Part shown: piece after piece, positions 5,032 through 19,728 of the stretch
Layout of the letters: each line of letters starts with the position of its first letter
Numbering within the stretch: position 1 is the stretch's first letter
IMG/VR virus record: IMGVR_UViG_3300037427_001592
Location: 1 to 22,993 of that record
Reading direction: 5' to 3' (one strand)
DNA from: a virus
DNA: 22,993 bases
The notes under the pieces: model-generated
Databases searched by the model: none
Told to the model about the DNA's origin: nothing
Seen by the model: only the letters and a program-made list of their open reading frames with translations
Translations under genes and position numbers: made by a program

Positions 5032-5886
5032 TTACCGTTTTTGGTTCTTTTTTGCTCTTTCGTGTATAGATTGTAATAATCTAACGAATGCAAAGCCACC
5101 GTTGGCAATATCATCTACCATTCTCATGATAGGAACATAAGCACTGACTACATTTGCTGGAATTGACTTTCCATCTTTTGCAAGTTCAACTGCCATCTTT
5201 GCTCTTCTAATATTTGCAGGTCCTACTAGTATTCTGTAAGCATTTAATTCATCTCCGGACATTTTTTTAGTGTCTGTGCCTGTTTCAGCATCTAACACAT
5301 TGTCTAGTTCAAACTTTTGTTTCTTAGAAAACTCTTCAACTTTTCTAGAAATATCCGTGCCTGGTAGTTTGGCTCTTACTGCCTGAAGTAATCTAGTAAC
5401 TGTAATTTTTTTTCTTCTAGTGTCTAATGAATCAAAGTCTGCTATCGCTCTTCTTAAGTTTTTGTAGTCTCCGTTAGTGATTCCTAAGGCAGTTTCCATG
5501 GCAGTTAAAAATCCATAATCATCTTGCATCATTCTAAGATATCTTTTAACAATAAGAGTAGGTACACTCTGTCTTTGTCTTAGAGCCTGTGCGGCGTTGC
5601 TATTAGACAACTTTAATGCAATAGCAGGATCTCCGTCTACTACTGCTAACATATTGTGAAGATCGTTCGCTGAATATCTTACTTTATCAAAGCCACCGTA
5701 TGTCATTGTTTCACGACCATATTGTCTTGCCCATCTAGATGTTTGTGAGAAACGTTTCAACAAAGACAAACTTAGGAAACTGATGTAGATCTTTTCACAT
5801 ATCTCTTGGAATGTATATCTAGATAGTTCTCCTGGACGTCTAACTACTCTACCTTCTGCTACGAATTTTAAAAATGGTGCTTTCAT
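5032..5886 (-). CDS. Unrecognised 284-aa basic helical protein
   Basis: Not recognised. It is basic and mostly helical with no membrane span. A notable stretch is RWARQYGRETMTYGGFDKVR (51-70). Several helices carry Arg/Lys clusters (KNLRRAIADFDSLDTRRKKI and others). The C-terminus ends in a helix plus HERAKKNQKR. The ATG lies 5 nt after an AATAAATA box that sits inside the end of the 404-aa gene, so its late mRNA would be nearly leaderless. It is separated from the 404-aa gene by only 8 nt. A structural or nucleic-acid-binding virion role is possible but unsupported. Confidence 0.8.
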   Translation of the reverse strand: MKAPFLKFVAEGRVVRRPGELSRYTFQEICEKIYISFLSLSLLKRFSQTSRWARQYGRETMTYGGFDKVRYSANDLHNMLAVVDGDPAIALKLSNSNAAQALRQRQSVPTLIVKRYLRMMQDDYGFLTAMETALGITNGDYKNLRRAIADFDSLDTRRKKITVTRLLQAVRAKLPGTDISRKVEEFSKKQKFELDNVLDAETGTDTKKMSGDELNAYRILVGPANIRRAKMAVELAKDGKSIPANVVSAYVPIMRMVDDIANGGFAFVRLLQSIHERAKKNQKR

Positions 5887-5891
5887 ATCAG

Positions 5892-5899
5892 TATTTATT
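5892..5899 (-). promoter_or_regulatory. T4-like late promoter box (AATAAATA)
   Basis: AATAAATA on the minus strand with only 5 nt between the box and the ATG at 5886. It overlaps the stop-codon region of the upstream 404-aa gene. Confidence 0.55.
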
Positions 5900-7109
5900 T
5901 TTTAAATTTGTTGACTGCTGTGAGGTTACGTCTTGAGAACCCTAATCTATCTACCAGTTTGACTGCATTACCCATTCTGTCAACGGCAACAAATCCTTCG
6001 GGATCGGTAACTTCTAACCCATTATCAGTTTGTGCAAATGATCCAATAGTCATTGCTTGATTCATTTTCTTCAACACAAAACCTTTCATGGTTTGTACTG
6101 CTTTGTAGAATGTCAGCATCGCTTGTAATGGTTTTCTGACTCTTGCAATAAACTGTGGCATCTGTTTCATTTTATCTTGTCTTAACGTTAGAGCCTTCTG
6201 TGCTTTCAGTCCTGCCATCTGTTGTTGCATTCTGTCTGCGTAAAACTTTTTAAATCCTAACAGGAATTGATTTATGTTGTTAGGTAATTGACCTTCTTTA
6301 ACCATTGCATTGATATACATCTGAAAGTATCCTACGAAGTCATTGTTCTGTCCAAGTTGTCCTGATAGGTCTCTTGGTACGTTTGCTAATAATGATTCTA
6401 GTTTGTCTAGGCCACTCATAAACTGTGCTGTTTCATCTGCTGTAAATTTAGCAGACCCTGATACATCTTTGTAAACTGCGTTATCAAAAAATACATCTGG
6501 GTTTTTACTCAACGACTGAACATTGGCTCCACCTTTAGCATTCATGTCGGCAAGTGTCTCACCAACATAAGTTGTATGAAATATGATTCCTAGTTTTGCG
6601 GCGTCTATTTGTTTGCCTAGTTCTGATTGTTCTTCTACTGCATATGTTATTGTGTTTGGTGTAAATGTTATGTGTGGCTTACCTTTGACATTTTTTCTTG
6701 TGATATCATTGTCAGTAAACAGTAAGTCTCCTTGTAGTACTTCTCTGATATCTAATTTTTGTAAATGTACAAGACATTTCAAAAGTTTTTGTCCAAGATC
6801 ATCTGTGCCGTGATTTTTTGCTATATCTTTCTTTGTGTAATTTATTTTGGCATTCTGAGCAAATACTGATTTAGTACCTACAAAAAATTTACCATTGTCT
6901 GGATTGGTACCACAAATGACAGCAGGAGCACCGTCCCATTTTACAGACACTTCCATTGACTCTGCTGATGATCCTTGTAGTGTTACTAATAGTCCACGGA
7001 AGTATTCAACAACAGACTTGCCGCCTTCGTATCCGTTTGTTACTACAAGATCTTCGATGTGTTCTAAATGTGTTCTCTTAAACTCGTTAAGGACGTCTTC
7101 TATTAACAT
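5895..7109 (-). CDS. Nucleotidyltransferase-like protein (DUF6267-like), possible ligase-fold enzyme
   Basis: This 404-aa protein resembles a family conserved in T4-like marine phages that I recall as DUF6267. It carries, in order, motifs matching covalent nucleotidyltransferases (DNA/RNA ligases and capping enzymes). Motif I-like VKWDGAPA has Lys57 and the KxDG form. A motif Ia-like FVGTKS lies at 76-81 and a motif III-like QGDLLF at 126-131. LGIIFHTTYVG at 173-183 fits motif IIIa. Motif IV-like EGFV is at 371-374 and motif V-like VKLVD at 383-387. Motifs III and IV are separated by an unusually long helical, Lys/Gln-rich insert (about 225-360). The start overlaps the stop of the 100-aa gene by one base (TAATG). 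Family membership is from memory; the enzyme reading is inference from motif order. Confidence 0.8.
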   Translation of the reverse strand: MLIEDVLNEFKRTHLEHIEDLVVTNGYEGGKSVVEYFRGLLVTLQGSSAESMEVSVKWDGAPAVICGTNPDNGKFFVGTKSVFAQNAKINYTKKDIAKNHGTDDLGQKLLKCLVHLQKLDIREVLQGDLLFTDNDITRKNVKGKPHITFTPNTITYAVEEQSELGKQIDAAKLGIIFHTTYVGETLADMNAKGGANVQSLSKNPDVFFDNAVYKDVSGSAKFTADETAQFMSGLDKLESLLANVPRDLSGQLGQNNDFVGYFQMYINAMVKEGQLPNNINQFLLGFKKFYADRMQQQMAGLKAQKALTLRQDKMKQMPQFIARVRKPLQAMLTFYKAVQTMKGFVLKKMNQAMTIGSFAQTDNGLEVTDPEGFVAVDRMGNAVKLVDRLGFSRRNLTAVNKFKK

Positions 7110-7411
7110 TACTCATCCTCTTCTCTGTATTCACCCTCTTTAATGACTAACGATTCTTTTATTCTTTTTAATTCTTTTATTCTTGAAACACCATTATTGA
7201 ATTTGGTTGGGTCCATTTGTTTTACCGCAGTTAAGAACTTCTTCTCTAATTTATATGCAGTTTCTTGATCAAAATTCTCTCGTATAAAACCAAATAGGTT
7301 AATAGATGAGTCAATGATGTGACTGGCTCTGCTTAACACAAGATTTTCTTTGTCCTGTGTTTTATTGACCGCTGTTAGTTCTTCTAATATACTACGAGTT
7401 TTGTTTTGCAT
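7109..7411 (-). CDS. Unrecognised 100-aa charged helical protein
   Basis: Not recognised. It is helical and highly charged, with a central hydrophobic patch (SSINLFGFIRENFDQETAYK, about 35-54) and a C-terminal Lys/Glu-rich stretch (RIKELKRIKESLVIKEGE). The stop codon overlaps the start of the nucleotidyltransferase-like gene by one base, so the two form a translationally coupled pair and may work together. A GTTAAATA box ends 5 nt before the ATG, making this the first gene of the pair's late transcript. Confidence 0.75.
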   Translation of the reverse strand: MQNKTRSILEELTAVNKTQDKENLVLSRASHIIDSSINLFGFIRENFDQETAYKLEKKFLTAVKQMDPTKFNNGVSRIKELKRIKESLVIKEGEYREEDE

Positions 7412-9741: not shown

Positions 9742-9924
9742 ATGCCAACTATTACAGACATATATTCTAGAGAAGACATAGAGAACAAAGATAAAAAAAT
9801 ACAAGAACTTGAAAGAGATATTGGCAATTTACAATTTCAAGTATCTGAATATCAGCAGATAGTCAAAGAACTATCAGATAAACTTACTGATTACTCTCGT
9901 ACTAAATCACAGAACAGTGAATGA
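9742..9924 (+). CDS. Small 60-aa coiled-coil protein
   Basis: No family recognised. From about residue 10 to 52 it is a continuous charged helix with hydrophobic heptad spacing (NKDKKIQELERDIGNLQFQV), likely a coiled-coil dimer, ending in a Ser/Asn/Lys tail. It has its own sigma-70-like promoter with almost no leader. Its last 34 nt run antisense over the 3' end of the amidinotransferase gene. Its small size leaves some doubt, but promoter and coding pattern both support it. Confidence 0.65.
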   Translation: MPTITDIYSREDIENKDKKIQELERDIGNLQFQVSEYQQIVKELSDKLTDYSRTKSQNSE

Positions 9925-10901
9925 TATCCATACGCAAATGTTTGTGTGTGCAGTAGGTTAGATTCTATTATTTCAAATCCGTGTGCGTTTAATAATTTAC
10001 ATAGTTCAGGTTGATCACTGTTGACCATCTTGTGTCTTTCATCTATGTTAAGCACTTGTAGATTAACATACTTTGATCCTAGAGGATGTTTGTATGCACC
10101 TTTGTCTTTTAAAGTTTCTACCCATATCTTTTTATAGTCTTTAAATATTTTTGGTATTGCTTCTCCAGACAATCTATCAGCATTACACAACAAAGTATTT
10201 TCATCCAGGGGCATCATATTATTACACAGTGATTCGTAATGATAAAATCTACCTGTTATTTCTACTTTGTATTCGTCACCTAGAACTTGTTGCAACCATT
10301 CAGCACCCAGTCTATTAGACCTAGCACTTGTGAAATACAATATAGTTTTGCCAAATTTTAATATGTCTGTTCCAACAAACAATGGTTCGTTGTTTCTTGC
10401 GTAAAGTTTATTATCCTTCTGTGCTATAGATCCTGCTTCTAATTTTGATCTAGGAGCAACAACGTATGCTCCACCATTCTCTTGAATGTATTTTTTTATT
10501 GGTCCATACACTTGTGATTCATAATGTTTAGATCTATAAGGGTGTGGACATTCAATTACTTTGTTACCGATAGTTACTAGTGTTTCTCTCATATTGAGAG
10601 TGTTCATTCCTGTACACACCCAGTCGTGTGTTGCAACTGCTGTCTTCCAGTTGGCTCTAGTAGGTCTAACTATCTCTATATCAAAATCTAATTTTAATCT
10701 ATCAATCAATAGATATATGTTTTCGTTTACACTTTCAATAACATCTTCTGGTATCTTATAAGGAAAGTGTCCGCCTTGGTCTCCAGGATACTTCAACCAA
10801 GTTTTAAACATAGGATCTTCGATAGGCCAATTGGCACCATCTGGTCTACCAACAACTATTGACTTGAGTTTACCATATTCACTGTTAGATTGTATATTCA
10901 T
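9891..10901 (-). CDS. Glycine/inosamine-type amidinotransferase homologue with Ser at the catalytic Cys position
   Basis: A 336-aa protein that aligns in outline with arginine:glycine amidinotransferases of the guanidine-modifying superfamily. It has SEYGKLKSIVVGRPDGANWP (7-26), THDW (91-94) with NKVIECPHPYRSKHYE (113-128), and EPLFVGTDILKFG (172-184, Asp179). RFYHYE (218-223, His221) and a C-terminal GSKYVNLQVLN with FAYGYHSLFCDLVRE follow. Known members move an amidino group from arginine through a Cys intermediate. The family's GGFHCWTCD-type end reads GYHSLFCD here, so the aligned catalytic Cys is Ser328 and the remaining Cys331 matches the non-catalytic one. The protein ends right after this motif. 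Activity is therefore doubtful. An ATTAAATA box precedes the start by 8 nt. Confidence 0.85.
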   Translation of the reverse strand: MNIQSNSEYGKLKSIVVGRPDGANWPIEDPMFKTWLKYPGDQGGHFPYKIPEDVIESVNENIYLLIDRLKLDFDIEIVRPTRANWKTAVATHDWVCTGMNTLNMRETLVTIGNKVIECPHPYRSKHYESQVYGPIKKYIQENGGAYVVAPRSKLEAGSIAQKDNKLYARNNEPLFVGTDILKFGKTILYFTSARSNRLGAEWLQQVLGDEYKVEITGRFYHYESLCNNMMPLDENTLLCNADRLSGEAIPKIFKDYKKIWVETLKDKGAYKHPLGSKYVNLQVLNIDERHKMVNSDQPELCKLLNAHGFEIIESNLLHTQTFAYGYHSLFCDLVRE

Positions 10902-18441: not shown

Positions 18442-19728
18442 ATGCAACCATGGAAAGTGATACAAGAACTAGAAGCAGACAATTCTAGACTGAAGAAAGA
18501 AGCAATTATTAAAAGAGAGTCCGATGCAGAAAATATTAGATTCTTTAACGGCATAGGAGCGGCCTTAGACGGCTTTAGAACATTTGGTGTTCAAAAGGTT
18601 CCAGTTGCTAAAAAAGATGGTCCAGGCATAACCCAATCAGACTTTGATGATATTCTTAGAAGTTTGGAGTCTAGGTCTTTAACAGGCAATGCCATGAAGG
18701 ATACCATACAGGTATTGTGTGATAGTTCTAAAATGGAAGAATGGAATGATTGGTACAGAAGAATTTTAATCAAAGATCTAAGATGTGGAATGACCCACAA
18801 GACTGTGAACAAATTTTCTACAATGAAGGTTCCTGTGTTTGATTGTATGTTGGCCACAGACTCTGCCAAACACGAGAAGAAAATGGTAGGAGAGATGCTG
18901 ATAGAACCCAAACTTGACGGAGTTAGAGTCATTGTCATATGTGATGTAGACAAAGATGAAGTGAAATTATTCAGTAGGAACGGAAAAGAGTTGTCTAACT
19001 TTCCTGAAATCAATAAGCAATTTGATGAGATGTTAGACCAGATGTCAGAGTCTATGGTATTTGATGGTGAGGTCATGAGTGATGACTTCCAAACTCTTAT
19101 GAGAGAGATACACAGAAAAGGTGGAGCAAAGACAAAAGATGCCAAACTTAATTTATTTGATTGTATGCCACTCTATAATTTTATGGACGGCAGTTGTGTT
19201 GATCCCATCACTGAAAGAAAGAAATGGTTAGACAAATACGAGTTTGGTCCAAACATTAATGTGGTTGAGTCTGTGAGGATCAATTTAAGTGATGCAGATG
19301 GACAGAAACAATTCGCAGACTATAACAAGATGTGTATAGATAGAGGATTCGAAGGCATAATGGTTAAACCCATAGGCGGTATCTATGAATGTAAGAGAAG
19401 CACAGGATGGTTGAAGGTTAAACCTTTTATAGAAGTATCATTGACAGTCGTAGACACAGAAGAGGGCACAGGTCGTAATGTAGGCAAACTAGGTGCTCTT
19501 ATAGTTGAGGGCACAGACGATGGCAAGTTTATTAAAACGAATGTAGGATCCGGTCTTACAGATACAGATAGAGAAACATATTGGACAGCCAAAGACAAAT
19601 TGATAGGGCAAGTTGTAGAAGTTAGAGCAGATGCCATAACACAGAATCAAAATGCTAAAGATGAATGGAGTCTTAGATTTCCTAGGTTCCTTAGATTTAG
19701 AGGATTTGAAATAGGAGAAAAATTATAA
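18442..19728 (+). CDS. ATP-dependent DNA ligase (T4 gp30-like)
   Basis: A 428-aa protein with all nucleotidyltransferase motifs of ATP-dependent DNA ligases. Motif I is EPKLDGVR (Lys157 the AMP-accepting residue) and RNGKEL lies in motif Ia position. FDGE is at 207-210, followed by LFDCMPL. Motif IV is EGIMVKP (304-310) and motif V is WLKVKP (323-328). The C-terminal OB-like domain has GKLGALIVEGTDDGKF and ends LRFPRFLRFRGFEIGE. An N-terminal helical DNA-binding region (1-140) completes the normal layout. It seals nicks during phage replication and repair. The ATG at 18442 is one base past the previous stop, and the next gene starts at TAATG. Confidence 0.95.
   Translation: MQPWKVIQELEADNSRLKKEAIIKRESDAENIRFFNGIGAALDGFRTFGVQKVPVAKKDGPGITQSDFDDILRSLESRSLTGNAMKDTIQVLCDSSKMEEWNDWYRRILIKDLRCGMTHKTVNKFSTMKVPVFDCMLATDSAKHEKKMVGEMLIEPKLDGVRVIVICDVDKDEVKLFSRNGKELSNFPEINKQFDEMLDQMSESMVFDGEVMSDDFQTLMREIHRKGGAKTKDAKLNLFDCMPLYNFMDGSCVDPITERKKWLDKYEFGPNINVVESVRINLSDADGQKQFADYNKMCIDRGFEGIMVKPIGGIYECKRSTGWLKVKPFIEVSLTVVDTEEGTGRNVGKLGALIVEGTDDGKFIKTNVGSGLTDTDRETYWTAKDKLIGQVVEVRADAITQNQNAKDEWSLRFPRFLRFRGFEIGEKL

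What the first reader, a model, noticed from the sequence alone, without database searches (positions are those of the whole stretch)
5895..7109. Conserved late phage protein with a complete ligase/capping-type motif series
Seen: KWDG (57-60), FVGTKS (76-81), QGDLLF (126-131), LGIIFHTTYVG (173-183), EGFV (371-374) and VKLVD (383-387), in the order of motifs I, Ia, III, IIIa, IV and V of covalent nucleotidyltransferases. The family has, to my knowledge, no assigned enzyme activity. The phage also has a normal DNA ligase at 18442, so this would be a second, late-expressed member. A helical insert of over 100 residues between motifs IIIa and IV is unusual. A virion-associated or late RNA/DNA ligase or capping-like enzyme would be new.
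Basis: partly seen in the sequence, partly recalled or inferred. Interest (0 to 1): 0.65.

Follow-up and report, generated by a model that had tools for sequence, protein, structure and literature searches.

The report
Phage head-targeted ligase-like enzyme family
A gene of unknown function that is widespread in ocean T4-type phages appears to encode a stripped-down, ligase-like enzyme, and in several lineages it carries the kind of short tag that phage T4 uses to load proteins into its head and inject them into the host, so it may be an enzyme delivered together with the phage DNA.

Summary
Observation confirmed: the 404-aa ORF lies at 5895-7109 on the MINUS strand, with all six motifs at the stated residues. 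It belongs to Pfam DUF6267 / PHROG_455, function unknown. Across 91 representatives Lys57, Asp59, Gly60, Gln126-Gly127-Asp128, His178-Thr179, Tyr181, Glu371, Gly372, Lys384 and Arg388 never vary, even in ~300-aa members. The 14 best PDB matches of a confident short-member model are all DNA/RNA ligases or a capping enzyme, but E-values (0.06-0.6) and TM-scores (below 0.32) are weak, and no sequence profile links it to a ligase. A divergent covalent nucleotidyltransferase without OB domain or motif VI is likely (about 0.85); the substrate is unknown, RNA-ligase-like being the best guess.

New point: four lineages carry an N-terminal extension ending in (L/I)-x-E just before the conserved core (307/307); two of them show the full T4 capsid-targeting pattern; short members lack it (0/80). 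The downstream window gene carries the strict T4 pattern. The adjacent NMNAT-like enzyme, found by published MS in four cyanophage virions, has that tag in 4/4. I infer head packaging and injection; DUF6267 itself has not been seen in a virion in the data I could read.

The parts
5895..7109 (-). DUF6267 protein, 404 aa, predicted minimal covalent nucleotidyltransferase
   Evidence: ORF; PF19782 E = 1.3e-102; PHROG_455
7083..7109 (-). N-terminal extension MLIEDVLNE (residues 1-9), capsid-targeting-like; predicted prohead protease cut after L-x-E
   Evidence: L-x-E at fixed distance from the core in 80/80 close relatives, x variable; hydrophobic residues instead of the T4 aromatics, so weaker than in other clades
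7050..7070 (-). Conserved start of the mature core, H14-x-x-H17-x-E19-D20
   Evidence: near-invariant in the family
6930..6941 (-). Motif I, K57-W-D-G60 (predicted nucleotidyl-lysine)
   Evidence: K57, D59, G60 invariant in 91/91
6867..6884 (-). Motif Ia, FVGTKS 76-81
   Evidence: F76 and K80 invariant
6717..6734 (-). Motif III, QGDLLF 126-131
   Evidence: Q126-G127-D128 invariant in 91/91
6561..6593 (-). Motif IIIa, LGIIFHTTYVG 173-183
   Evidence: H178, T179, Y181 invariant
6060..6440 (-). Helical subdomain between motifs IIIa and IV (residues 224-350)
   Evidence: AlphaFold2 model
5988..5999 (-). Motif IV, EGFV 371-374
   Evidence: E371, G372, V374 invariant
5949..5963 (-). Motif V, VKLVD 383-387
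   Evidence: K384 and R388 invariant
5032..5886 (-). Directly downstream gene, 284 aa, function unknown, strict T4-type capsid-targeting N-terminus MKAPFLKFVAE
   Evidence: only 1 of 45 window ORFs with the pattern; 43 of 68 relatives at this place
7109..7411 (-). Directly upstream gene, 100 aa, PHROG_11854 (virion structural protein), start codon overlap; starts MQNKTRSILEEL
   Evidence: at this place in 69 of 75 relatives of the cluster

Best explanation
DUF6267 is a divergent, minimal covalent nucleotidyltransferase. Lys57 attacks the alpha phosphate of an NTP (or NAD+) to form a Lys-NMP intermediate, helped by the acidic and Lys residues of motifs III, IV and V, and the NMP is passed to an acceptor, most likely a 5'-phosphate of RNA (RNA-ligase-like). 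In lineages with the N-terminal extension, the window's included, the protein is made as a head precursor: the extension acts like a T4 capsid targeting sequence, the prohead protease cuts after (L/I)-x-E, and the mature enzyme, starting at the conserved core, is packaged and injected with the genome to act in the first minutes of infection, for example in end repair. Shown here: motif series and invariance, modular extension and its match to the T4 determinants, conserved gene linkage. Shown in the literature: neighbours present in virions. Inferred: fold, chemistry, acceptor, and packaging and injection of DUF6267 itself.
For: Invariant motif series in 91/91 representatives in both size classes. 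Short-member model: PDB ranks 1-14 all covalent nucleotidyltransferases; ligases also recur in the long-model list. Secondary structure fits: motifs I, III, IIIa, IV and V lie in or at strands. No C-terminal OB domain, as in Rnl-type RNA ligases. Tag: (L/I)-x-E just before the core in 307/307 long members with extension, 0/80 short members; conserved positions equal residues 4, 7, 8 and 10 of the T4 IPIII tag; the pattern finds only ipII and ipIII in T4. The T4-type prohead protease family PF03420 is present in 7/7 large records of the other clades. The neighbouring NMNAT-like enzyme is in four virion proteomes and tagged in 4/4.
Against: No Foldseek match below E = 0.001 and TM-scores below 0.32; no sequence-profile link to ligases; motif III Asp instead of Glu. 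The window's own extension lacks the T4 aromatics. No T4 prohead protease or gp23 found in window-clade fragments, though these are incomplete. DUF6267 has not been reported in a virion in the papers read; the untagged S-SZBM1 protein was not detected.
Confidence: 0.55

Rival explanations
1. The same kind of nucleotidyltransferase, but not packaged: it acts inside the cell during infection (RNA or DNA repair), and the N-terminal extension is a folding or binding element.
For: Cyanophage and short members lack the extension altogether, so the enzyme can work without packaging; in HTVC008M and S-SZBM1 the gene lies near replication genes; DUF6267 was not among proteins detected in S-SZBM1 virions; the window clade lacks the aromatic targeting residues.
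Against: The extension is exactly removable at a prohead-protease-type site, with the four T4 determinants conserved and everything else variable in the DLP6-like clade; linked genes share the pattern and some are virion proteins.
Confidence: 0.3
2. A catalytically dead relative or a structural head protein: the nucleotidyltransferase core is kept as a binding module without transfer chemistry.
For: Motif III Asp and a single motif V Lys differ from the canonical series; no activity known; weak structural scores.
Against: Strict invariance of the whole active-site-like series in divergent members, which a dead copy would not need to keep.
Confidence: 0.07
3. Not a covalent nucleotidyltransferase: an unrelated fold with a chance resemblance of short motifs.
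For: No profile-level similarity to ligases; no Foldseek match below E = 0.001.
Against: Strict invariance of the residue series and the exclusive run of nucleotidyltransferases at the top of the short-model search.
Confidence: 0.08

Closest known systems
DUF6267 (PF19782) / PHROG_455 / T4-GC 71
   Same: The window protein is a full-length member
   Different: The family has no assigned activity or localisation; the ligase-like motif series and the capsid-type tag are proposed here
Rnl2- and Trl1-type RNA ligases (T4 RnlB, Naegleria RNA ligase, trypanosome REL1, fungal tRNA ligase)
   Same: Motif order I, Ia, III, IIIa, IV, V; no OB domain after motif V; among the best structural matches
   Different: No sequence-profile similarity; Asp in motif III; helical subdomain between IIIa and IV; no C-terminal domain; N-terminal HxxHxED element
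ATP- and NAD+-dependent DNA ligases and mRNA capping enzymes
   Same: KxDG and EGxV motifs; recur among structural matches
   Different: OB domain and motif VI absent
T4 internal head proteins (IPI-III, Alt)
   Same: N-terminal removable tag with (L/I)-x-E and, in two clades, the aromatic targeting positions
   Different: T4 IPs are small basic proteins and Alt an ADP-ribosyltransferase; none is a ligase-like enzyme; virion presence not shown for DUF6267
Cyanophage NMNAT-like 'cytidylyltransferase' (T4-GC 190)
   Same: Adjacent gene, in S-PM2 fused to DUF6267; same kind of tag; found in virions of four phages
   Different: HIGH-superfamily nucleotidyltransferase (PF01467), a different fold and a non-covalent mechanism; no relative found next to the window gene

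Membership tests
DUF6267 (PF19782) | Profile score above the curated cut-off over most of the protein | tested here: met
   344 bits against a cut-off of 27, profile positions 2-374 of 376
Covalent nucleotidyltransferase superfamily | Motif I K-x-D-G with invariant Lys | tested here: met
   91/91 representatives
Covalent nucleotidyltransferase superfamily | Motif III acidic residue (usually Glu) | tested here: inconclusive
   Invariant Asp128 in Q-G-D, not Glu
Covalent nucleotidyltransferase superfamily | Motif IV E-G-x-V and motif V Lys | tested here: met
   E371, G372, V374, K384 in 91/91; only one motif V Lys, with R388 four residues on
Covalent nucleotidyltransferase superfamily | Nucleotidyltransferase core fold | tested here: inconclusive
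   Short model: ranks 1-14 all superfamily members, but best E = 0.058 and TM below 0.32
Covalent nucleotidyltransferase superfamily | Significant sequence-profile similarity to a known member | tested here: not met
   hhalign, PDB, Pfam and PHROG searches
Covalent nucleotidyltransferase superfamily | Covalent Lys-NMP intermediate | not testable with these tools
   Needs an assay with a Lys57 mutant
DNA ligases and mRNA capping enzymes | C-terminal OB domain with motif VI | tested here: not met
   The chain ends 20 residues after K384 with one short helix
T4-type capsid-targeted internal head proteins | Prohead protease site (L/I)-x-E at the end of a short N-terminal extension | tested here: met
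   V-L-N-E in the window, 80/80 in its clade, 307/307 in four clades
T4-type capsid-targeted internal head proteins | Targeting residues of the T4 tag (aromatic at positions 4 and 7) | tested here: not met
   Window DUF6267 has Ile and Val there; aromatics are the rule in DLP6-like and common in Melnitz-like members and in the downstream window gene
T4-type capsid-targeted internal head proteins | T4-type prohead protease in the same phage | tested here: inconclusive
   PF03420 in 7/7 large records of other clades, none in five window-clade fragments of 40-93 kb
T4-type capsid-targeted internal head proteins | Processed protein present in the mature virion | not testable with these tools
   Published lists show neighbours, not DUF6267; the untagged S-SZBM1 DUF6267 was not detected; supplementary tables could not be read

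The most novel reading that the evidence does not exclude
A head-packaged, injected nucleic-acid processing set: a nuclease-like protein, a minimal covalent ligase (DUF6267) and an NMNAT-like enzyme, each with a T4-type capsid tag, acting as the DNA enters the cell. DUF6267 might even be an NAD+-dependent ligase whose released NMN is recycled to NAD+ by the adjacent (in S-PM2 fused) NMNAT-like domain.
Probability: 0.12. Interest if true: 0.9.

Novelty: new variant of a known kind. Interest (0 to 1): 0.62.

Why it matters
DUF6267 occurs in at least 466 sequenced phage records and in hundreds of marine viral contigs without an assigned function. If it is a ligase-like enzyme loaded into the head, these phages would deliver a covalent nucleic-acid-modifying enzyme together with their DNA. 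T4 injects an ADP-ribosyltransferase and a restriction inhibitor (PMC9026906); I know of no injected ligase. The tag also offers a reason why NMNAT-like enzymes keep turning up in cyanophage virion proteomes, which their authors could not tell from carry-over, and gives a simple N-terminal pattern for finding other injected proteins of T4-type phages.

Tried and rejected
Sequence-profile links to ligases: hhalign of the long and short family alignments against RNA ligase, NAD+ ligase and ATP ligase alignments gave nothing above unrelated controls; the ligase-ligase positive controls were clear for RNA against ATP ligases but weak against NAD+ ligases, so the test has limited reach. PDB, Pfam and PHROG searches likewise gave no link. 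Fold search with the full-length window model was dominated by coiled-coil and BAR proteins because of the helical subdomain, so a short member was modelled. Capping enzyme or DNA ligase as sub-family: rejected, no OB domain or motif VI. T4-type late promoter on the gene's strand: none. T4 capsid and prohead protease in the window's clade: not found in the fragments at hand. Literature naming DUF6267, T4-GC71, PHROG_455 or PF19782: none found; passages of the jumbo-phage survey PMC7824862 on RNA ligases discuss Rnl1, Rnl2 and RtcB and do not mention this family. Alignment A2 starts one residue late, so its numbering is window minus 1.

Full report
OBSERVATION. The ORF is real but lies on the minus strand. 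It is a DUF6267 protein (PF19782, E = 1.3e-102; PHROG_455), a family found by tblastn in 466 phage records, nearly all T4-type cyanophages and relatives. All six quoted motifs are at the quoted residues. The DNA ligase at 18442 is confirmed. The window is a 22,993-base virus record. Its close relatives are marine viral fragments of up to 93 kb with ribonucleotide reductase and virion genes; the host is unknown.

CONSERVATION. Relatives were collected from viral contigs and phage records. Among 91 representatives clustered at 80% identity (23 clusters at 60%), K57, D59, G60, P62, K80, Q126, G127, D128, P151, Y156, H178, T179, Y181, N267, E371, G372, V374, K384, R388, F391 and N395 never differ. 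The family has two size classes, 400-420 aa and about 300 aa, and the short class keeps the motif residues. Motif III is not absolute outside this set: S-SM1 has QAD in place of QGD.

FOLD. AlphaFold2 models of the window protein (pLDDT 87.9, pTM 0.84) and of a short member (pLDDT 89.8, pTM 0.85) are confident. Against PDB the long model gives no clear match because its helices attract coiled coils, though ligases recur. For the short model ranks 1-14 are all covalent nucleotidyltransferases (archaeal, human and NAD+ DNA ligases, Naegleria RNA ligase, fungal tRNA ligase, capping enzyme RNGTT), and 29 of the best 50 are, by my count; the rest are mostly carbonic anhydrases. The E-values are 0.06 and higher and the TM-scores below 0.32, so this is suggestive, not proof. 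Sequence profiles add nothing. Together with the invariant motif series I put the superfamily assignment at about 0.85. Only 20 residues follow the motif V lysine, so there is no OB domain; this argues against capping enzymes and DNA ligases and leaves RNA-ligase-like chemistry as the best guess, about 0.5 given the fold.

N-TERMINUS. In four long clades an extension precedes the conserved core H-x-x-H-x-E-D and ends in (L/I)-x-E at a nearly fixed distance from it: 76/76, 75/75, 80/80 and 76/76 sequences with a recognisable core. The short class starts at the core (0/80), and so do cyanophage proteins that begin MAKNTH or MSKNTH. In the DLP6-like clade the extension reads M-x-x-F-x-x-(F/Y)-(L/I)-x-E, with the other positions free. 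The T4 internal proteins IPII and IPIII start MKTYQEFIAEA. Amber-suppressor work reviewed in PMC9026906 assigns targeting mainly to residues 4 and 7 and processing by gp21, which cuts after L/I-x-E, to residues 8 and 10. A regular expression for this pattern finds only ipII and ipIII in T4 (2 of 252 ORFs), 7 of 288 ORFs in a 195-kb DLP6-like record (DUF6267 and its upstream gene among them) and 1 of 45 in the window. It is absent from 305 bacterial ORFs and follows 5 of 9,817 internal Met positions. Within the loci it concentrates in DUF6267 and adjacent genes. The clade members are related, so these counts are not independent events; the weight lies in four diverged clades keeping L-x-E while x varies. 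In the window's clade DUF6267 has Ile and Val in place of the aromatics, so the case for the window's own protein is weaker. The next gene, 5032-5886, has the full pattern.

NEIGHBOURS AND VIRION DATA. Directly upstream in other clades are several protein clusters with conserved D-x(n)-(E/S)-x-K residues, as in PD-(D/E)XK nucleases, many with the same tag; no Pfam match confirms the nuclease reading. Downstream is an NMNAT-like HIGH nucleotidyltransferase (PF01467), fused to DUF6267 in S-PM2. It has been detected by mass spectrometry in virions of S-SM1 (T4-GC190, PMC3037559), S-SZBM1 (PMC9146016), S-SCSM1 (PMC9602691) and S-CREM2 (PMC10665884). Its N-termini there are MKKFSAFLNEAE, MRFRQFIIEA, MKSFLQFLKEAA and MKNFSSFLTEAD: the tag in four of four. 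The S-SCSM1 gene in the upstream slot (SSCSM1_90) is recorded as a virion protein too. S-SZBM1 DUF6267 (SSZBM1_141) starts MAKNTHLEHLED without tag and is not among the 30 proteins detected. That is one data point, consistent with the tag deciding packaging; low abundance would explain it as well.

INTERPRETATION. The best-supported account is a minimal covalent nucleotidyltransferase which in some lineages is made with a removable T4-type capsid tag, packaged and injected. Shown: motifs, invariance, tag pattern, linkage. From the literature: virion presence of neighbours. Inferred: fold, catalysis, acceptor, and packaging and delivery of DUF6267. The acceptor may be broken tRNA or other RNA ends early in infection; DNA ends and protein nucleotidylation remain possible. 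The NMNAT-like partner raises the possibility of an NAD+-dependent ligase with NMN recycling, which is speculation.

Noticed in passing
L445:7188-8276, L564:4417-5580, L565:28820-30049, L566:4609-5469: NMNAT-like 'cytidylyltransferases' detected in cyanophage virions by published MS all start with a strict T4-type capsid-targeting pattern (4 of 4), which suggests that they are true internal head proteins and not carry-over.
   Followed up: yes
L081:6950-8008, L085:4881-5966, L194:3211-3999, L236:2452-3228, L225:2622-4004: The gene directly upstream of DUF6267 belongs to several unrelated clusters with PD-(D/E)XK-nuclease-like conserved residues, many with the same N-terminal tag; no Pfam match supports the nuclease reading.
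   Followed up: partly
L082:4983-6762 (AJ630128, S-PM2): In the older S-PM2 record DUF6267 is split over two ORFs, the second named cytidyltransferase; the structure library holds a 591-aa S-PM2 fusion, so the split is probably a sequence error or a later mutation.
   Followed up: partly
L088:3998-4885 (P-SSM2): The annotated start of the P-SSM2 member (270 aa) is too far downstream: the conserved core MKNTHIEHPED lies in frame upstream, giving 296 aa.
   Followed up: yes
L546-L555 (G012), record positions 37314-38805 and 180396-181010: Three further proteins of a 195-kb DLP6-like virus carry the strict tag pattern and are candidates for other injected proteins.
   Followed up: no
window 9891-10901 (-): 336-aa protein matching PHROG_25854 (unknown function); by eye its start resembles amidinotransferase-type proteins, untested.
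   Followed up: no
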